Assembly: GCA_019636285.1 (NCBI GenBank)
Contig: JAHBXV010000032.1
Location: 1-64,000 of the forward strand
Direction of reading: 5' to 3'
From: Planctomycetaceae bacterium
Lineage (GTDB): Bacteria; Planctomycetota; Planctomycetia; Planctomycetales; Planctomycetaceae
DNA length: 64,000 nucleotides
A program made the position numbers and the translations under genes. Shown piece by piece: positions 57,018 through 64,000 of this stretch (position 1 is its first letter; each line of letters opens with the position of its first letter). Below the pieces are notes generated by a model that saw only the letters and a list, made by a program, of their open reading frames with translations, did no database searches and was not told the DNA's origin.

Positions 57018-57587
57018 TCAGCCGCCTCGACAGGACGTCCTCTTCTCTCCCCTGGCGATGGACACAACGCCATTGAGATGACAGACCAACTGATTGAGGC
57101 CGACATGGAATAAGTCACGTTCGCCGGCGTCGGGCGGTGGCTCCATATAGGCATTGCGATGCCCTTTGAGCGCCGCACACCAAGACCGAATCTGCTCATC
57201 CTCGAATGAAGCATAGAGGTCGTGAGCAAATCGGTTCCTGATTTTGCCAACAAGCCGAAGGTCATCACGGATGGTCTTGTTGATGAGGCCAAAGCAGTAT
57301 GCAGCACGGATTCGGTTTCCGTAGCTGCCGAGTGGCTGGTCGTATCGCATCAGCTCTGCGACTTCCTTCGAATCGGCAACTAAGAAGTTGATGAGGATGT
57401 GCTCCAGGAGCATGTCGAGAAAGGCGGCCCCTACGATGACCAAGGCGCGGTCATTCGTCTCATCATGCTTGAAGAGTCGAGCAAACTCTAGGAGTGCATC
57501 CTCAAGCGAGAAGTATCGCTCCAAGTCTTTTCCCGTGATCCAGGAGGGATCGAATTCGGGATCGCTTTCGGTTCCACTCATCGTCAT
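57018..57587 (-). CDS. MtlR-like protein downstream of the ATPase operon
   Basis: 189 residues. The central part ALVIVGAAFLDMLLEHILINFL, YDQPLGSYGNRIRAAYCFGLI and KIRNRFAHD is the MtlR pattern (mannitol-operon repressor-like domain). The second half has no known motif. It follows the winged-helix ATPase gene by 76 bases on the same strand. MtlR-like domains also occur near defence genes, but this link is inference. GGTGAGAA precedes the ATG. Confidence 0.75.
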   Translation of the reverse strand: MTMSGTESDPEFDPSWITGKDLERYFSLEDALLEFARLFKHDETNDRALVIVGAAFLDMLLEHILINFLVADSKEVAELMRYDQPLGSYGNRIRAAYCFGLINKTIRDDLRLVGKIRNRFAHDLYASFEDEQIRSWCAALKGHRNAYMEPPPDAGERDLFHVGLNQLVCHLNGVVSIARGEKRTSCRGG

Positions 57588-57663: not shown

Positions 57664-59004
57664 CTATTTCACTGACCCATTCTGTGCCCGGAGATCAAGC
57701 TCATTGACGGTTAGCCGGACGAGCAGTCGCGTGGAGCGCGTGGGTGTCTGCCGCCAATGCGTCAAAACCAACTCCGGCTCCAGCGATGAGCAATTCGGGT
57801 AGGCGGTTCGGTACAGGCGAGCGACACTGCTAACCAATTGTTCGGCAAGCCCATCCGTCAGCCGTGGCGGGCGCAGAGGTTGGATCTCCTGAAAACGCCC
57901 GACGAACCACTTGGCATCTGGGGTCCAGTTGCCCCAACTATCAGCGGTTCCCTGGATGGCGTCCTGCTCAAGTTGATAAAGTAGTCTGTCGGTGACAAAC
58001 AATACTGGAAGGATATGGGGGTGCCGGCCCATTCGGCCCAGCGTGTCGTAGCTCTTTCTGCGTCCCCGGATGTCGTATTGCTTGTCAATATTCTCCGCCT
58101 CATCCAGCAGCAGGACCAATCCGCCACGGTTCATCTTGTTCAGAAATGTGGCAACAGACTCCACCAGTGACCATGCCTTTGGATGCTGGTACGGATAGTC
58201 GGGTGATCGGTACAGATGGCCGAGCGCCCGCAGCCAGCCCCATTCGGAGCCGCTCATCGCCCAACGAAGGCCGTAGGCGAAGTCAGAATAGTTGCTTGCT
58301 GCCCATGTCAAGGCTTTGTCCTGTGGCAGCACGCCGTAACTCAGCGCGTCCCGGAGTCCAACTGTGCGACCGAACTGGATGCGTTCGAGCCAGCGCGGGA
58401 CCGACCGGTGGATATGTGCAAGCGAGGCGGCACGGGCGTCGATGCATTCGTGAATGAATGGGATACCCTGCTCAGAGAGATGACTAGAAATCAGCATCCT
58501 CGTATGCGACTTGCCAAATCCCCAGTCAGCGGCAATCACGATCATGTCGCCTTTGGTGCCGTCCTGCAAAAGCGAGTCGGTCCGCGAGTATAGTTCCTGT
58601 TCGATTCGCTTCGTTCCCACCGATACTGCCTTGGCGGCTCGGCACGAAGTCGTTCCTAAGCGGAGTACCTGAAGCACTCGCCTAGCAGCCCGGCACTCTT
58701 CCGTTGACGGACCGGATGTTTCGCCGATAGAAGTCACGTAGGACGCATCCAGCTCCTGCGGGTCGTGGGCGGAAACCATTGCCTTGCGATTCGGAAGAGT
58801 CGCGGACCATCGGTATTGCGAATCCTGCGCGACCCGGGCTGCCTTGGATAGTTCGTGGTAAAGGACGGAATTCACTGTAGTTCTGGTCACGGCAAGCCCA
58901 CGCCCGTGTAGCATGTCTGCAATCTCCCGCGCCTTGAGGGGTTCAGCGGACTCGCGAAGAACTGCAAGGATGCTTTCTGCGATTTGTTCCCGTTCATCCG
59001 CCAT
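57664..59004 (-). CDS. DUF2791 (BrxD-like) ATPase with winged helix
   Basis: 446 residues. An N-terminal winged-helix (residues 4-68, AREIADMLHGRGLAVTRTTV followed by YRWSA) leads to an ATPase core with ECRAARRVLQVLRLG, the P-loop ADWGFGKSH at 159-167 and the Walker B LVLLLDEAE at 296-304. This is the DUF2791 / BrxD type seen in BREX systems. The rest of BREX (pglX, pglZ, brxA, brxB) is not in the window. A 45-base gap separates it from the preceding ATPase gene. The target of the winged helix is unknown. Confidence 0.8.
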   Translation of the reverse strand: MADEREQIAESILAVLRESAEPLKAREIADMLHGRGLAVTRTTVNSVLYHELSKAARVAQDSQYRWSATLPNRKAMVSAHDPQELDASYVTSIGETSGPSTEECRAARRVLQVLRLGTTSCRAAKAVSVGTKRIEQELYSRTDSLLQDGTKGDMIVIAADWGFGKSHTRMLISSHLSEQGIPFIHECIDARAASLAHIHRSVPRWLERIQFGRTVGLRDALSYGVLPQDKALTWAASNYSDFAYGLRWAMSGSEWGWLRALGHLYRSPDYPYQHPKAWSLVESVATFLNKMNRGGLVLLLDEAENIDKQYDIRGRRKSYDTLGRMGRHPHILPVLFVTDRLLYQLEQDAIQGTADSWGNWTPDAKWFVGRFQEIQPLRPPRLTDGLAEQLVSSVARLYRTAYPNCSSLEPELVLTHWRQTPTRSTRLLVRLTVNELDLRAQNGSVK

Positions 59005-59049
59005 ACGGCACCCTACGTCTCAGCATGCTTGCTAGTCGGAAACGTTGAA

Positions 59050-60354
59050 CTATTGTCCTTTGATTTCTCGCTCTCGCTCTTTTCGCATTTCCTCCGTGCG
59101 CGTTGCCAATTCTTCGCGAAGATCGGCTCCAAGCCGCCCTTCCAAGAGTTCGACCATGCACCGGCATAGCAGACGTGGCCGGGCAATGACGTAATTTCCA
59201 TTGGCCACGGCGCTCACCAGCTTCGGAATGCGGGCCAGCAAATCTTCGCTGGGATCGCCGCTCGCTGCCCTGAAGACGCCTACCACTTTGTCGGCAAGGT
59301 CTCGCAGTTCCTTCTCGCCCAGTTCAGTGGCATCGAGGTTCACCACAGGTGCCCGGTAGTTGATGGCTCCTTTGCCGGACAAGGACGGTAATTCCTCAAT
59401 CCGGTCCTGTAGCGCCTTGTAGCTTGGGAAAAGGTCGGGGTTCTCGAACATGTCCGGGGTTGCTGCGAGGTAGAGGCAGGTGGAGGGCGGCATCAGGTTT
59501 TCGTCGTTCTGATCGACCAATTCCCGCAAGGTTTGGAAACTGTTGTTGCGGCGGCGGCTGGTCTGCCCGGAAATCAGTTCAATTTCATCAATGGCCAGGT
59601 ACAGGCCGTTGTAGCCAGCCTCGTCAACTAACAGTGCGAACAGCCGAATGAGTTGTTCCGCATCGCCGAGTCCCAATGGCTTCAGGACGGACCGCGCCGC
59701 CTTCGTCTTCGGCTGATTGGGGGATGACGATAGTTCGTTGGGATCGACCGTCAGGGATTCACCGCCCCCACCCAGCCAGTTGGCGAATTGGGCCAGCAGT
59801 GGCTCGTCCTTTTCAAGAAGGGCGTATATGCACACTTGCAGCGCTAGGTTGAACTGGTAACCGAGGCCGTGCTCCTGGACGAAGTTTGACACCGCCCGCT
59901 GCGCGCGCTCGCGCGTCTTGAAAGACATCGGCCCGGCAGGGTCGTAGCCGTTGCGCTTGGCAATGCCGATCAATGCCTGTTTCAAAAGCGACGGCAGCCC
60001 TCGCTTGCCGTCAGGCAGTTCCAGCTTGTCGGCGATCTCTGCGACGATGGTATTGAAGCGATCCAGCTCGACTTCGCCGTGCTTGAGCAGCACATACGCG
60101 GTTGCCCAGCCCCTGGCTTTTGCTTCGGCTTGCAAGCACCGCAGGAAGTGAGTCTTACCGCCGCCGTAGCGGGCGCGGATGAACCGCACGTCGAAATGCT
60201 CGCAATCCGCAAGCTCGTCAAGCAGCATGACCGCGGTTTGGAACCAGGGAGTCTGGCCAACCGATAGCTCCAGGGCAAACGCCGCTGGCGTCGAGCCAGA
60301 GCGCAGTGCCTTGAGCACCTGCACCGCCTTGGGTCGTGGCAACGCCGTGTTCAT
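59050..60354 (-). CDS. DUF2791 (BrxC/BrxD-like) ATPase
   Basis: 434 residues. The start RPKAVQVLKALRSGSTP is like the BrxD N-terminus. P-loop ARYGGGKTH is at 61-69 and Walker B GLYLAIDEIELI near 250-261, followed by CLYLAATPDMF and an arginine-rich region that may include a sensor. The C-terminal part is helical and ends in a charged RTEEMRKERER tail. It has no N-terminal winged helix, unlike the next ATPase. GAGGGGGTCAAC precedes the ATG, which overlaps the preceding stop by four bases (ATGA). Confidence 0.78.
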   Translation of the reverse strand: MNTALPRPKAVQVLKALRSGSTPAAFALELSVGQTPWFQTAVMLLDELADCEHFDVRFIRARYGGGKTHFLRCLQAEAKARGWATAYVLLKHGEVELDRFNTIVAEIADKLELPDGKRGLPSLLKQALIGIAKRNGYDPAGPMSFKTRERAQRAVSNFVQEHGLGYQFNLALQVCIYALLEKDEPLLAQFANWLGGGGESLTVDPNELSSSPNQPKTKAARSVLKPLGLGDAEQLIRLFALLVDEAGYNGLYLAIDEIELISGQTSRRRNNSFQTLRELVDQNDENLMPPSTCLYLAATPDMFENPDLFPSYKALQDRIEELPSLSGKGAINYRAPVVNLDATELGEKELRDLADKVVGVFRAASGDPSEDLLARIPKLVSAVANGNYVIARPRLLCRCMVELLEGRLGADLREELATRTEEMRKEREREIKGQ

Positions 60355-61139
60355 GTTGACCCCCTCTTGGTGAATGCAAGCCGGCCGACCTGTACGACGC
60401 GCCCCTCGGCAGGTGAGAAGACTTCCCAGACATCTTTGCGGGTGACGGTTGGGGTCAGGCGTAGCTCCCGACCATCGGCGGGCTTTACGTTTTCGGCGAG
60501 GACGGCTGCCAGACGGCAGCGGAATATGGGCCGCGACAGGGGCTGAAATTTGGATGCTTCGACATTCGCCCAGAATCCCGCCGGTTGGACCAGGAGAATG
60601 CACTGACGGTAGATGGCCTCGATGGAAACATCACCCTGGCCGCCAAGGACTGCGTACGCTTCGACAAGCATGTCGCAAAAGCGTTGCAGTGAAGCCTTGT
60701 CGCCGCTCAGGGATGTGATATGCGGCTTCAGGGCGGCGAGTACAGCGGGAACATGGGGCGAGTGCTTGCCGGGCATGGCCTCGATTAGCACCGCATCGTT
60801 CTTGAGTTCGACAAAGAATGCCCGCGCTACCAGCCGCCGTTCCGTCGAGCCATGCACTTCCCAGCCGGCATTGTTGGCGGCCGCGTCGAACTTCTGCCAG
60901 AATTCAGCGATGCCTTCGACGCACGCGGTCTCGATGGCCTTTCGGATGTCGGCCGGCGCCTTTAGCGAATCAAGCCCAGTCTCCGCCAAGGTCTTGTCGG
61001 CCCGTTCGATCTGCTCTCGTTGGACAAACGGATCGTCGCCACTGGCGAGCAGCGCTTTTGCATGGGCATGGAGCTTCTTGCTAACGCCTTCAATCTCGGT
61101 AGCCCAGCGTTCGATACGGGTTGGTTCAGTCTGTGACAT
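60351..61139 (-). CDS. Unknown helical protein of the ATPase operon
   Basis: 262 residues, no recognised family. The N-terminal third is highly helical (IERWATEIEGVSKKLHAHAK, then VQREQIERADKTLAE), and a beta-rich part with RRLVARAFFVELKNDAVLIE and the C-terminal LTPTVTRKDVWEVFSPAEG follows. GAAGGAGACCGCC precedes the ATG. It overlaps the preceding 435-residue gene by 14 bases and the next ATPase by four, so its product probably acts with both. Confidence 0.7.
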   Translation of the reverse strand: MSQTEPTRIERWATEIEGVSKKLHAHAKALLASGDDPFVQREQIERADKTLAETGLDSLKAPADIRKAIETACVEGIAEFWQKFDAAANNAGWEVHGSTERRLVARAFFVELKNDAVLIEAMPGKHSPHVPAVLAALKPHITSLSGDKASLQRFCDMLVEAYAVLGGQGDVSIEAIYRQCILLVQPAGFWANVEASKFQPLSRPIFRCRLAAVLAENVKPADGRELRLTPTVTRKDVWEVFSPAEGRVVQVGRLAFTKRGST

Positions 61140-62433
61140 GGCGGTCTCCTTCGGCCACGGTGAAATCTTTCAGCAATTCCGAGAGCCCGGTCTTTGGAAC
61201 TGCCGCTGTTCGCCCTCGCAGTTCGGCACGACCGGACAGGCGCACTGAATTTGATGTGTGGGAATTGATTCGCATGGCTTCGAGCAATCGTTCGATGGTG
61301 GCGAGTTCCAGCAGGTATCCCCGCCCAAGTGCCCGCAGGCATGACAGCGAAGCCCACGTATGGACCTGCACCGGGCCGATTTGCCGGCGGGCATTTGGCA
61401 GTGTCTCATCAAGTAGCTCAGCGATTTGCCGTTGGTCCTCAAAGGCATCCAGCTCGTGAGTTTTCTGGCCAAGGCCTACGGCGCAAAACCGCATCCACGA
61501 TTCCTGGAAGAATGATTCCAGGTCAGCGAGTCGCGCCGCCAGGATTCTGGCTGCTGCTGGAAGCCCAGGTGAAACGTACCAGGTCCAGGACGTGCGCGTT
61601 TTTTCCCTGGAGGCGTCGTCCACCGGCGGTTGATTAGGGTCTTCCTTGGTAAGCAGCCCCAAGTCCGTGAGCTGCTCAAGCCGCGAAATGGCGTGATACT
61701 CGGCCAACTTGACCCGCACGCCCTTCAGGCGCTCAGAGACAAGGGTTTTGAGCACCTCGCGGCGAGTCTCGGAATTGACTAGCTTGCGAGGATCATCCAG
61801 TTTGAATTGCTTTCCGATTCGCTCAAGCACATCTCGCAACTCTAGCCGTAATTGGAGTTCCGCCGGGCTGTTGCCTTTCACAGTATCAAGTAAGTCACCA
61901 AGGGCCTGAGTGACGAGCACGCAACTTTCGGCGACACCGATCGATGCTCCAGCATCGAACTGCCCCAGGTGATGCACGAGGAACGGGAGAACCTGATCGT
62001 GGAAGAAGAGTAGCTGGACGAAAAATGCACGTTCTTCCAGCGACAGAATAAACGGATTGTCCTGCATCCAGCTTTGCTCGCCGGGGCGGCAGCGCACACC
62101 ATGAAGGATGGCAGCCCACTCGGATAGCCTGCCGCTTTGGGCCACCAAACCGACCTTCTCCGCCCACCAGACGAGCCGATCAAGCGTTTTGGGAACAAAC
62201 CCCACAATCCAGGAGGGGATGCGTTCATCGCGAATGAGCGCTTTCGGGTCGAACTCTTCCATGCGGCGACCGGCCAGAGGCGGCCGTCGGCCTCCTGGGT
62301 AAAGCGACTTCACCCGGTCGAGGATGTCGCCGGGACCGCCGCGCGCACCCTGGCCGACACGGTTGACGACCTTTAGGAAACCCAGCCGTTGCTGGTAGTC
62401 CTTGTTGTAGTTGCAGAATCTCGCTTCAATCAT
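61126..62433 (-). CDS. Unknown protein of the ATPase operon
   Basis: 435 residues. The N-terminus ARFCNYNKDYQQRLGFLKVV and GRRPPLAGRRMEEFDPKALI is distinctive; later it has long helices and a segment ISRLEQLTDLGLLTKEDPNQ that resembles a winged-helix. No catalytic motif seen. AAGGGGGCTTGCG precedes the ATG. It lies between the HerA-like ATPase (11-base gap) and the 262-residue protein (14-base overlap). It may be a DNA-binding or adaptor subunit, as an inference only. Confidence 0.7.
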   Translation of the reverse strand: MIEARFCNYNKDYQQRLGFLKVVNRVGQGARGGPGDILDRVKSLYPGGRRPPLAGRRMEEFDPKALIRDERIPSWIVGFVPKTLDRLVWWAEKVGLVAQSGRLSEWAAILHGVRCRPGEQSWMQDNPFILSLEERAFFVQLLFFHDQVLPFLVHHLGQFDAGASIGVAESCVLVTQALGDLLDTVKGNSPAELQLRLELRDVLERIGKQFKLDDPRKLVNSETRREVLKTLVSERLKGVRVKLAEYHAISRLEQLTDLGLLTKEDPNQPPVDDASREKTRTSWTWYVSPGLPAAARILAARLADLESFFQESWMRFCAVGLGQKTHELDAFEDQRQIAELLDETLPNARRQIGPVQVHTWASLSCLRALGRGYLLELATIERLLEAMRINSHTSNSVRLSGRAELRGRTAAVPKTGLSELLKDFTVAEGDRHVTD

Positions 62434-62444
62434 CGCAAGCCCCC

Positions 62445-63806
62445 TTAAAACGCCTTGCCGCCATGTGCCACGACGCGGGGCCGCACATCCATCACGAAGG
62501 CACGCTCGACGCTATCGCTCGACACGAACGCGGTTCCGACCTCTAGGGAGCGGATCAGCTCGCCAAGATCGACTTCCCGATCATTGACTTTGATCTTCTG
62601 CGGCAGACCCGATTGGATCAGATCCTGGACTGCGTTAATGTCATCTGCATTGGACAGGCGGTGGACGATCAGCGAATCGAGTTGCTTGATTGCTTTTTGC
62701 GAAATGGCTCCCCGTGGAATCTGCGTTGCCATCCAAATCGAAAGTCCGAAATTCCGGCCCTCCAGAATGTAGGATTCGATGGCGGCACGTGCCGGGCCTC
62801 CGCCGGATGATGGAAGAATCATCTGCGCCTCGTCGATGGCCAGAATCGTTCGCGGCATCACTGGAAAGGCGGCAGCGCCGGCCGCCGGGTCGTAAGCTTG
62901 GCGTCGCTCGCTCTGGCTGGAGCGGCTTCGTGCCGCCTGGATCTTTCGCACCAGCACGCCGGTGATGACGGAGCGCATGTCCTCTGAAAGCCGGTTGAGG
63001 CAGAGAATCGAGAGCTGGCCGGCCTTGACCAGATCGGTGACGGCCGTGCCGGTGTCGCTTTGAAAGAGCGGATCGCCATGCCAAGTCCGCAGACGCTGCC
63101 GCACGGCACGGACCGTCTGGCTGCTGTAGCTGGCCTGAATGTCATGATCGTCCAGGCACGCAATCAGGTCCGTCAGCCCATACACGCCCTTGGGGGCAAC
63201 GTGGTTATCGCCTATCTCATAGCCGAGCCGCGTCACTTTCTCGTACAGTTCCCAGAGCAGCATACCGGCCGGGTCCGATATGATGTTTGCGCCATAGAGC
63301 ATTCCCCAGTCTTCAGGCGTGAGATCGGTCACGGGAATCTGGAACGGAACGAAAGCGGGCGGGTCTTCCGCCTGAGCACGGCCTGCCGGCATATAGACGT
63401 TGACCTGGATCGGCTCGACAGCGACATCGGGCCATCGAGCCAGCAGCTTGTGCTGTTCTTTCATGTGTCGCGAGACACCATCCTGGACCGGATAGATAGC
63501 CGTCCAGTGAATATCCAGCGGGTCAAGCAAAAGGACACCTCGCCGGTCCGGGCCGTGGGTCGCCAGCGAACAGGTGTCCGCCGCTGTAGCAAACGCTTCG
63601 AGCGCGGCTCCCATGCCGAAGGATTTGCCGCTGCCGCGCTTGCCGACTTCGAGCACGACGAAATTATTGTCGGCGTCGAAATAGACATTGTTGTTATTCC
63701 TTCCGCTGTCACGCAGCCTGCCGATCAGGACCTGGTGCTCTCCCGGTCCGCCGATGCGTACACGGCTGGTAATTTCAGGAACGCATGAAAAACGAACGCT
63801 GGCCAT
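62445..63806 (-). CDS. HerA/FtsK-like ATPase
   Basis: 453 residues. P-loop GKRGSGKS at 55-62 within FVVLEVGKRGSGKSFGMG, Walker B ILAIDEAQ at 321-328, and the HerA-type signature EGRNFGLSIWMATQIP near 349-364 are all present. HerA-family proteins are hexameric DNA translocases found in repair and in several anti-phage systems. GAGGAATAACA precedes the ATG. It is 29 bases downstream of the partial gene at the window edge. Confidence 0.85.
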   Translation of the reverse strand: MASVRFSCVPEITSRVRIGGPGEHQVLIGRLRDSGRNNNNVYFDADNNFVVLEVGKRGSGKSFGMGAALEAFATAADTCSLATHGPDRRGVLLLDPLDIHWTAIYPVQDGVSRHMKEQHKLLARWPDVAVEPIQVNVYMPAGRAQAEDPPAFVPFQIPVTDLTPEDWGMLYGANIISDPAGMLLWELYEKVTRLGYEIGDNHVAPKGVYGLTDLIACLDDHDIQASYSSQTVRAVRQRLRTWHGDPLFQSDTGTAVTDLVKAGQLSILCLNRLSEDMRSVITGVLVRKIQAARSRSSQSERRQAYDPAAGAAAFPVMPRTILAIDEAQMILPSSGGGPARAAIESYILEGRNFGLSIWMATQIPRGAISQKAIKQLDSLIVHRLSNADDINAVQDLIQSGLPQKIKVNDREVDLGELIRSLEVGTAFVSSDSVERAFVMDVRPRVVAHGGKAF

Positions 63807-63835
63807 TGTTATTCCTCAATGATTTATCATGACGG

Positions 63836-64000
63836 TTAGAAGCCTTCGACGACCTGTTGCAGCACCTGAACATCGATCAGCTTCTTACCCAGCGTGATCG
63901 CGCGTTGCGCGGCGCGTTCCAAATGGTTCAGCAATTCTTGCGGCTTGTTTTCCTCGGTGCCGACCGAATGATGCTGGATGAATTCGCGGAAGGCATCCTC
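63836..64000 (-). CDS. Partial gene at window edge, unknown
   Basis: The last 54 codons, ending in LGKKLIDVQVLQQVVEGF, with EDAFREFIQHH at the left. It is read on the minus strand and so lies upstream of the HerA-like gene. Too short to classify; it shows that the operon continues to the right of the window. Confidence 0.8.
   Translation of the reverse strand, partial: EDAFREFIQHHSVGTEENKPQELLNHLERAAQRAITLGKKLIDVQVLQQVVEGF

What the first reader, a model, noticed from the sequence alone, without database searches (positions are those of the whole stretch)
57664..64000. Unclassified operon of three ATPases: HerA-type, two DUF2791 types, and two unknown subunits
The minus-strand genes are nearly contiguous: 29 and 11 bases separate the first genes, then two overlaps (14 and 4 bases), then 45 bases. 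One product is a HerA-like translocase (P-loop GKRGSGKS, Walker B ILAIDEAQ), two are BrxC/BrxD-like ATPases, the second with an N-terminal winged helix, and two have no recognised family. In BREX, DUF2791 ATPases act with PglX and PglZ, and HerA ATPases occur in other anti-phage systems; I know of no system that combines these parts this way, though the full set to the right of the window is unseen. A recombinase remnant lies next door.
Basis: partly seen in the sequence, partly recalled or inferred. Interest (0 to 1): 0.86.

Follow-up and report, generated by a model that had tools for sequence, protein, structure and literature searches.

The report
HerA motor with PLD nuclease operon
A bacterial gene cluster that looks like a multi-part machine for grabbing, pulling and cutting foreign DNA, in which a DNA motor, a nuclease and a DNA-reading subunit are joined to ATPases that elsewhere sit beside a helicase.

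Summary
In detail: HerA, two BrxC/BrxD-type (DUF2791) ATPases and two unclassified proteins form one tight minus-strand operon. The contig runs 9.5 kb past the window and adds a wHTH gene, a sigma-54-type AAA without GAFTGA, a PLD-family protein and an ORC/Cdc6-type AAA. No BREX, Ssp or Dnd set was found beside it, and no PglZ or SspC in the genome.

In 21 distinct bacterial loci ORC and HerA always occur, X or a remote homologue always, a PLD protein in 19. X435 is predicted to fold like the FokI recognition region and SspB; the PLD profile matches the restriction nucleases BfiI and SauUSI. The core is paired with SspBCD (2 loci), a methyltransferase (6), an ABC ATPase (4) or, as here, Y plus two BrxD-type ATPases (4). 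In ten other planctomycete loci Y and BrxD-type ATPases occur without HerA, seven with a BrxHI/SngC-like helicase; here that helicase is missing.

Best reading: an ATP-driven capture-and-cut defence complex, a new variant of the published HerA/FtsK capture systems. Function is inferred; nothing was tested at the bench.

The parts
63836..64000 (-). 3' end of the ORC/Cdc6-type AAA ATPase (389 aa; whole gene is contig C40 63836-65005, same numbering as the window). Further upstream, outside the window: PLD protein C40 65036-65506 (156 aa), sigma-54-type AAA lacking GAFTGA C40 65648-66937 (429 aa), wHTH gene C40 66972-67397 (no relative found at the other loci)
   Evidence: AAA_22 E 1.6e-08; family found at 21 of 21 bacterial loci
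62445..63806 (-). HerA-type DNA translocase, 453 aa
61126..62433 (-). X435: likely DNA-recognition subunit, predicted fold like the FokI / Nt.BspD6I recognition region and SspB
   Evidence: model pLDDT 76.8, pTM 0.81; VIA Z 9.4 (rmsd 4.2, 200 aligned) / 9.2 (4.7, 210) / 7.4 (4.9, 218), next row 4.7; sequence and Foldseek searches gave no significant hit
60351..61139 (-). Y262: unclassified protein, partner of BrxD-type ATPases, with a possible winged-helix C-terminus
   Evidence: pLDDT 60.7; best Z 7.0; remote homologues beside BrxD-type ATPases in other planctomycetes
59050..60354 (-). BrxD-like ORC/Cdc6-clade ATPase, 434 aa
   Evidence: PF10923 4.8e-38; BrxD 9.5e-31, SngB 2.1e-15
57664..59004 (-). 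BrxC/D-like ATPase with N-terminal winged helix, 446 aa
   Evidence: PF10923 1.3e-06, HTH_12 9.6e-4
57018..57587 (-). MtlR-like protein, 189 aa, 76 bases downstream; membership of the operon uncertain
   Evidence: PF05068 4.3e-4, below cut-off; mannitol operon repressor structure 0.0017

Best explanation
The operon encodes an anti-invader DNA restriction complex of the HerA/FtsK-capture kind. X435, with a FokI/SspB-like predicted fold, and Y262 choose or sense the DNA. The ORC/Cdc6-type ATPases (ORC, BrxD-like, BrxC/D-like) form or load rings on it. HerA pumps the duplex, and the PLD protein, related to BfiI and SauUSI, cuts it. In this variant the Y-BrxD-BrxD' set, which elsewhere is followed by a BrxHI/SngC-like helicase, is joined to the HerA core with no helicase, so I infer that these ATPases now load or switch on HerA. 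Shown: gene content, operon structure, conservation of the core, predicted fold of X435 at moderate confidence, conserved catalytic motifs, exchange of partner modules. Inferred: complex formation, order of action, nuclease activity, defence role, and how self DNA is spared (no modification gene is linked here).
For: Core at 21 distinct bacterial loci: HerA 21, ORC 21, X 17 plus the family c40 in the other 4 (c40 is homologous to X, hhalign probability 97.3), PLD-type 19. 0 of 62 archaeal loci with related HerA proteins carry ORC, X or PLD; 47 of those 62 and 17 of the 21 bacterial loci hold at least 3 kb on both sides of HerA. Pairwise distances of core genes agree (r 0.87-0.94, 0 of 2000 permutations as high). 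HerA groups on a quick tree largely match partner modules while phyla are mixed: the window groups with Phenylobacterium (SH-aLRT 98), not with G266 of its own family. The core is linked to SspBCD at 2 loci (L051; L049) and to a large methyltransferase at 6. The PLD profile hits SauUSI 5.8e-06 and BfiI 5e-05, with HAK and S-N motifs aligned. X435 fold. A BrxHI/SngC-like helicase accompanies Y and the BrxD-type ATPases at 7 of 10 HerA-free loci, the other 3 contigs ending first. Defence-type neighbours: HsdM/HsdS beside G266's operon, HEPN and HNH genes beside L038's.
Against: No activity data of any kind. L028 and L043, two of the four loci of the window's own subtype, lack the PLD gene, so PLD cannot be the only cutter. 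No linked modification module explains self-protection here. The X435 match is by fold only: hhalign to SspB gave probability 0.5, Foldseek alone found nothing significant, and Z near 9 with rmsd 4-5 over half the model is moderate for a mostly helical protein. Y262 is poorly modelled. The ORC matches at the four c30-type loci are weak (1e-12 to 1e-15). L030 lies in the window's HerA group but has no Y or BrxD pair. The wHTH gene has no relative at the other loci. Correlated gene distances partly reflect shared ancestry, and the profiles were built from most of the loci counted.
Confidence: 0.68

Rival explanations
1. It is the restriction half of a modification-dependent system whose methyltransferase or other marking enzyme lies elsewhere in the genome.
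For: The same core is linked to SspBCD or to a methyltransferase in 8 of 21 loci; the own genome has six N6_Mtase matches on other contigs; the sibling G266 has HsdM and HsdS next to its operon.
Against: None of the own-genome matches is on this contig; N6_Mtase genes ring in 13 of 14 control genomes, so their presence is uninformative; no SspC match in the own genome.
Confidence: 0.2
2. Two neighbouring independent systems (a HerA core and a Y-BrxD-BrxD' set) that merely lie side by side.
For: Each module exists without the other: 17 of 21 core loci lack Y, and 10 of 10 further Y loci read lack the HerA core in the stretch fetched.
Against: Same order in 4 loci from two phyla, X and Y overlapping by 14 bases here and by 4 bases in L028 and L038 (coordinates); none of the four has the helicase found at 7 of the 10 HerA-free loci.
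Confidence: 0.15
3. A DNA-transfer or plasmid/chromosome segregation machine rather than defence.
For: HerA/FtsK proteins and ORC/Cdc6 proteins also serve segregation and replication; an integrase lies directly upstream in G266.
Against: A PLD protein related to BfiI and SauUSI, a FokI-like predicted fold, exchange with Ssp and methyltransferase modules, sparse distribution and mixing of phyla on the HerA tree.
Confidence: 0.1

Closest known systems
HerA/FtsK capture systems with Orc/CDC6 ATPases (Rakesh, Aravind, Krishnan 2024, PMC10853773; abstract, sections 22 and 26 and passages read)
   Same: HerA/FtsK translocase, ORC/Cdc6 AAA ATPase, and in a subset a fast-evolving wHTH protein related to DndG, SspB and FokI
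   Different: Their core has an active REase and an inactive REase inserted in the ORC protein; here a PLD-family protein is the nuclease candidate, and Y plus two BrxD-type ATPases are added. Words beginning 'PLD' or 'phospholipase' do not occur in that paper's main text; its supplements were not readable
BREX-Related Capture (BRC) systems (Rakesh and Krishnan 2026, PMC12839542; abstract, sections 24, 34 and 36 and passages read)
   Same: HerA combined with BREX-type ATPases and wHTH proteins
   Different: BRC has PglZ, DUF6079, STAND, DUF4007, GNAT and TGT; no such family hit in the operon proteins scanned and no PglZ in the genome
SspFGH and DndFGH restriction modules (SspFGH: PMC8092258, abstract and passages read)
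   Same: An ATPase, a further subunit and an FtsK/HerA-type motor paired with phosphorothioation genes; in L051 the core stands directly after SspBCD
   Different: The three genes after SspBCD on three plasmids, which I read as SspFGH from gene order and the FtsK annotation, are 603-626, 523-557 and 1771-1810 aa; no profile relation to the core families beyond P-loop-level matches and HerA-SspH at probability 25
BrxHI-BrxD dyad of type 2 BREX (PMC12839542 section 24), and Shango (SngABC; the make-up of Shango is recalled)
   Same: BrxD/SngB-like ATPase
   Different: No helicase of the BrxHI/SngC-like family seen beside Y elsewhere is at this locus; among the 86 core and archaeal loci only one archaeal locus, L107, has a match
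BfiI and SauUSI, PLD-type restriction nucleases (names recalled for entries 2c1l and 7clg)
   Same: PLD domain with HAK and S-N motifs aligned
   Different: Here a single small protein of 156 aa encoded apart from any recognition or helicase part

Membership tests
BREX | PglZ | tested here: not met
   No PF08665 match in the own genome, nor in G266 or L038's genome; 4 of 12 genomes searched have one
BREX | BrxC/BrxD-type ATPase | tested here: met
   PF10923 4.8e-38 and 1.3e-06, over Pfam's cut-off; the NCBIfam BREX_BrxD equivalog cut-off is not reached, 106.7 of 350 bits
HerA/FtsK capture system with ORC/Cdc6 | HerA/FtsK translocase | tested here: met
HerA/FtsK capture system with ORC/Cdc6 | ORC/Cdc6-type AAA ATPase | tested here: met
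   AAA_22 1.6e-08; orc1/cdc6 NCBIfam 6e-4, below cut-off; hhalign to the BrxD-like family 98.6; no solved relative at 0.001
HerA/FtsK capture system with ORC/Cdc6 | active REase nuclease | tested here: not met
   No REase Pfam match in the operon proteins scanned; a PLD domain is present instead. An inactive REase insert in the ORC protein was not tested by fold
HerA/FtsK capture system with ORC/Cdc6 | DndG/SspB/FokI-like multi-wHTH protein (in a subset) | tested here: met
   By predicted fold only; no sequence-level support
SspFGH | homologous SspF, SspG and SspH | tested here: not met
   hhalign of nine families from the core and its partners against SspF/G/H read from L125, L126, L128: best probabilities 34.9 (the sigma-54-type AAA to SspF, 23 columns round the P-loop) and 25.1 (HerA to SspH)
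DndFGH | DndF, DndG, DndH | tested here: not met
   PADLOC: only DndH at E 0.022 over the HerA core; no DndF or DndG
BRC | PglZ with DUF6079, STAND and DUF4007 | tested here: not met
   No PglZ in the genome; no such Pfam hits in the operon proteins scanned
Shango / BrxHI-BrxD | SngC/BrxHI-like helicase | tested here: not met
   Absent from the locus; helicase matches in the own genome lie on other contigs
MADS | mad1-mad8 | tested here: not met
   Only mad8 (HerA 1.1e-11, ORC 7.2e-6, sigma-54-type AAA 3.2e-4) and a weak mad1 hit (wHTH, 0.0096) in the operon
PLD-type restriction nuclease | PLD domain with catalytic-type His, Lys and Asn | tested here: met
   PLDc_2 1.1e-11; invariant H86, K88, S106, N108, E119 in alignment A6 of 13
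PLD-type restriction nuclease | DNA cleavage | not testable with these tools
   needs biochemistry

The most novel reading that the evidence does not exclude
A portable four-part restriction engine (PLD nuclease, ORC ATPase, HerA motor, FokI/SspB-like reader) that plugs into different partners. With phosphorothioation or methylation genes it restricts unmarked DNA. In the window's clade it has swapped marking for a BrxD-type loader set without its helicase, and so tells foreign from own DNA by how or where the DNA is loaded rather than by a chemical mark.
Probability: 0.3. Interest if true: 0.82.

Novelty: new variant of a known kind. Interest (0 to 1): 0.62.

Why it matters
If right, it adds a PLD-armed branch to the HerA/FtsK capture systems, gives Ssp phosphorothioation a further candidate restriction partner besides SspE and SspFGH, and offers a natural experiment in which BrxD-type ATPases sit beside HerA instead of a helicase. 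That makes the open question of what BrxD ATPases load directly testable.

Tried and rejected
Standard BREX, Ssp, Dnd, Dpd or DISARM locus to the right: rejected by reading the contig to its end and scanning its main ORFs (the PLD protein alone has weak DrmC, 1.3e-4, and DpdK, 0.052, hits) and by genome searches for PglZ and SspC. A sigma-54 activator role for the 429-aa AAA: the GAFTGA motif is absent. Relation of X435 to SspB by profile: not supported at sequence level. Relation of the core to SspFGH: not supported. Archaeal HerA relatives as further members of the system: rejected, none of 62 has ORC, X or PLD in the stretch held; stray hits there were c30 in 2, SspD in 1, methyltransferase in 1. 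Plasmids: no X homologue by tblastn with three X queries; only two distant HerA hits. Foldseek against PDB for X435 and the VIA list for Y262 gave nothing decisive (best Z for Y 7.0, an ORC/Cdc6 entry). Solved structures for the ORC alignment: none at 0.001. Literature searches aimed at the combination (one search listed 15 of 510 papers) found no paper describing PLD-ORC-HerA-X or HerA with the Y-BrxD pair; only open-licence PMC papers are held and no supplements could be read, so this is not proof of absence. Searches looked for MADS and SspFGH; a MADS primary paper was not among their listings, and MADS gene roles were not used beyond the PADLOC names. Of PMC9252829 I saw passages only.

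Rows dropped before counts: L046 and L052 are the same loci as L030 and L031, and L153 is L051; L005 was left out of the bacterial count as a likely BRC plasmid of a haloarchaeon. Profiles for X, ORC and PLD were built from most of these loci; independent finds were X in 2 further loci, ORC in 8, PLD in 3. At L039 and L040 the methyltransferase is cut by the contig end; at L045 the PLD match is a fragment near the contig end; at L044 the ORC match is split over two frames. Of the 15 further genomes with a Y match, 10 loci were read. At L150 an unassigned 444-residue ORF lies between the BrxD-type ATPases and the helicase.
Full report
WHAT IS THERE. The window is bases 1-64000 of contig C40 (73,562 bp) of an assembled genome. 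The contig continues to the right, and reading it completes the operon in 5' to 3' order: wHTH protein, AAA with a sigma-54-activator-type domain but no GAFTGA motif, PLD-domain protein, ORC/Cdc6-type AAA, HerA, X435, Y262, BrxD-like ATPase, BrxC/D-like ATPase with a winged helix. Gaps are 34, 141, 30, 29, 11, -14, -4 and 45 bases. A MtlR-like gene follows after 76 bases. Five proteins have Walker A and B motifs, and the PLD protein has the HAK and GSxN motifs. GC of the operon (L002 2665-11938) is 58.9% against 60.9% in the first 50 kb of the window. The wHTH protein found only itself among the 86 loci then held, so it is not shown to be part of the system.

WHAT IT IS NOT. No pglX, pglZ, Ssp, Dnd or complete Dpd set appears beside it in Pfam, PADLOC and NCBIfam scans of six window proteins and of seven (PADLOC) or eight further contig proteins; genes left of 57018 were not scanned. 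The own genome has no PglZ match and no SspC match. Methyltransferase matches exist on six other contigs, but such matches occur in 13 of 14 control genomes.

CONSERVED CORE. HerA relatives were fetched with an alignment and by whole-genome search (18 of 294 genomes of the phylum had any match at E 0.001, but apart from the own genome only G266, G207 and G234 matched along the protein; 16 of 170 of the family, only G266 and G425 along the protein besides the own genome). After removing duplicates there are 21 bacterial loci: Planctomycetota, Chloroflexota, Verrucomicrobiota, Myxococcota, Thermodesulfobacteriota, Campylobacterota and Pseudomonadota, and one viral contig. Profiles searched against all open frames found HerA and ORC in 21 of 21, X in 17 and, in the other 4, a family c40 that is homologous to X (hhalign probability 97.3). 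A PLD protein was found in 19 (16 plus 3 of a longer PLD type); it is missing in L028 and L043. In 62 archaeal loci with related HerA proteins none of ORC, X and PLD was found; 47 of them hold 3 kb or more on both sides. Pairwise distances of the core genes agree closely, with the caution that shared ancestry contributes.

PARTNER MODULES. Four loci (window, G266, Phenylobacterium L038, Gemmataceae L043) carry Y and two BrxD-type ATPases after X; L047 has a BrxD-type pair upstream and no Y. Six loci carry a large methyltransferase directly after X (L039, L040, L041, L042, L044, L118 by profile; the L044 protein gave Eco57I 2.3e-13 and REase_MTase_IIG 1.3e-49). Two carry SspB, SspC and SspD (L051: 1.9e-112, 1.1e-170, 1.3e-88; L049 by profile). 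Four carry a protein c30 by profile, whose L065 member has an ABC ATPase domain (2.3e-14). The remaining five (L030, L045, L047, L048, L050) have other or truncated surroundings. On a quick HerA tree the methyltransferase-linked six (SH-aLRT 95), the Ssp-linked two (100) and the c30-linked four (97) are groups, and the window's group of five (97) holds the four Y loci and L030; host phyla are mixed, and the window's HerA pairs with that of Phenylobacterium (98) and not with G266 of its own family. The modules therefore appear to move and stay together.

X435. Pfam, PADLOC and NCBIfam do not recognise it, nor does a profile search of solved structures (best 0.36). Its AlphaFold2 model from 15 sequences has mean pLDDT 76.8 and pTM 0.81. 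Foldseek alone gave nothing significant. The VIA second look at 752 of Foldseek's chains put seven entries of three proteins first: FokI (Z 9.4, rmsd 4.2, 200 aligned; 8.9 for a second entry), Nt.BspD6I (Z 9.1-9.2, rmsd 4.7-4.8, 204-211 aligned) and SspB (Z 7.4, rmsd 4.9, 218 aligned), then a drop to 4.7. FokI and SspB are the proteins that Rakesh and colleagues name as sharing the triple-wHTH module with DndG (PMC10853773, passages of section 19 and section 22). I read X as the DNA-reading subunit, at fold level only; hhalign to SspB was not significant. Between L028 and L043, HerA is 76% identical, ORC 74%, X 60% and Y 47%, as expected if X and Y face a changing target.

THE NUCLEASE. The PLD alignment of 13 has invariant H-A-K, S-x-N and E, and its profile matches two solved chains at 0.001: 7clg (listed as putative helicase; the name SauUSI is recalled) and 2c1l (listed as restriction endonuclease; the name BfiI is recalled), with the motifs aligned.

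THE SECOND MODULE. Y has remote matches in 15 further genomes of 392 of the phylum, and none beyond L038's own in 299 genomes of L038's family. Ten of the 15 loci were read: all ten have BrxD-type ATPases beside Y and none shows the HerA core. In seven a BrxHI/SngC-like helicase accompanies them (in L150 with an unassigned ORF between); in three the contig ends first (four of the helicases were scanned, BrxHI 1e-67 to 1.7e-72 and SngC 4.4e-61 to 2.1e-70). No such helicase is in the four window-type loci. Those in their genomes lie on other contigs (own, G266 and L043's genome, whose locus is on contig C2) or about 167 kb away (L038's genome). BrxD has been proposed to load or activate the BrxHI helicase (PMC12839542, section 24). 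From this I infer that in the window type the ATPase pair serves HerA instead.

HOW IT MAY WORK. Inferred steps: X and Y meet DNA; ORC and the BrxD-type ATPases assemble on it; HerA translocates the duplex; PLD cuts. What spares the host's own DNA is unknown. In the Ssp- and methyltransferase-linked relatives a chemical mark is the natural guess, by analogy with SspFGH, which damages unmodified DNA (PMC8092258, abstract and passages). Here no mark is linked. Since L028 and L043 lack PLD, another nuclease must act there (L028 has a weak Mrr_cat match next door, 0.021) or PLD is dispensable.

COMPARISON. The nearest published kind is the HerA/FtsK capture system with ORC/Cdc6 (PMC10853773) and, for HerA with BREX-type parts, BRC (PMC12839542). 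The window's operon meets the HerA, ORC and (by fold) reader features and differs in the nuclease and in the Y-BrxD set. It is not SspFGH: three gene sets read as SspFGH from plasmids showed no profile relation to the core beyond P-loop-level matches and a weak HerA-SspH similarity. I therefore file it as a new variant of a known kind. Searches of the held library found no description of this combination.

Noticed in passing
contig C40 68396-72301 (L002 13397-17302), just right of the window: A JAB-ThiF (E1-type) fusion, a ClpB-type AAA protein and a small protein upstream of the operon; looks like a separate ubiquitin-like conjugation island (weak match to 6A-MBL cap2_3). Used as queries, these proteins found no relative at the other bacterial loci listed.
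   Followed up: partly
L146, L147, L148, L149, L150, L151, L152: Y, two BrxD-like ATPases and a BrxHI/SngC-like helicase together in other Planctomycetota; the two Y proteins scanned have no Pfam or PADLOC hit. Possibly a separate Shango-like defence system.
   Followed up: partly
L051 2020-12503 and L049 2563-13605: SspBCD phosphorothioation genes next to the PLD-ORC-HerA-X core with a second ORC-type ATPase; SspFGH-like genes were not seen in L051's ten scanned proteins, so the core may stand in for SspE or SspFGH.
   Followed up: partly
L051 13916-15538 and 15529-17328: Downstream of the core: a helicase-type protein matching PbeA (1.6e-22) and a GHKL ATPase matching MzaB (2.8e-17).
   Followed up: no
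L053-L117 except L065, L082, L100: Archaeal, often DPANN, HerA-like proteins in varied chromosomal surroundings lie opposite the bacterial HerA proteins on the tree (16 sampled); in five Thermoplasmata loci the protein is about 1140-1246 aa.
   Followed up: partly
L044 17187-20932: The methyltransferase-linked locus ends with a pair matching PADLOC candidates PDC-M61A (weak, 0.0048) and PDC-M61B (1.9e-50), the second with weak MreB similarity.
   Followed up: no
L005 (Haloplanus plasmid): HerA beside a 1363-aa BREX-type ATPase and a GNAT gene; resembles the published BRC system.
   Followed up: no
L028 13678-14676: A tyrosine recombinase (Phage_integrase 5.8e-17) directly upstream of the sibling operon in G266, with HsdM and HsdS downstream.
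   Followed up: no
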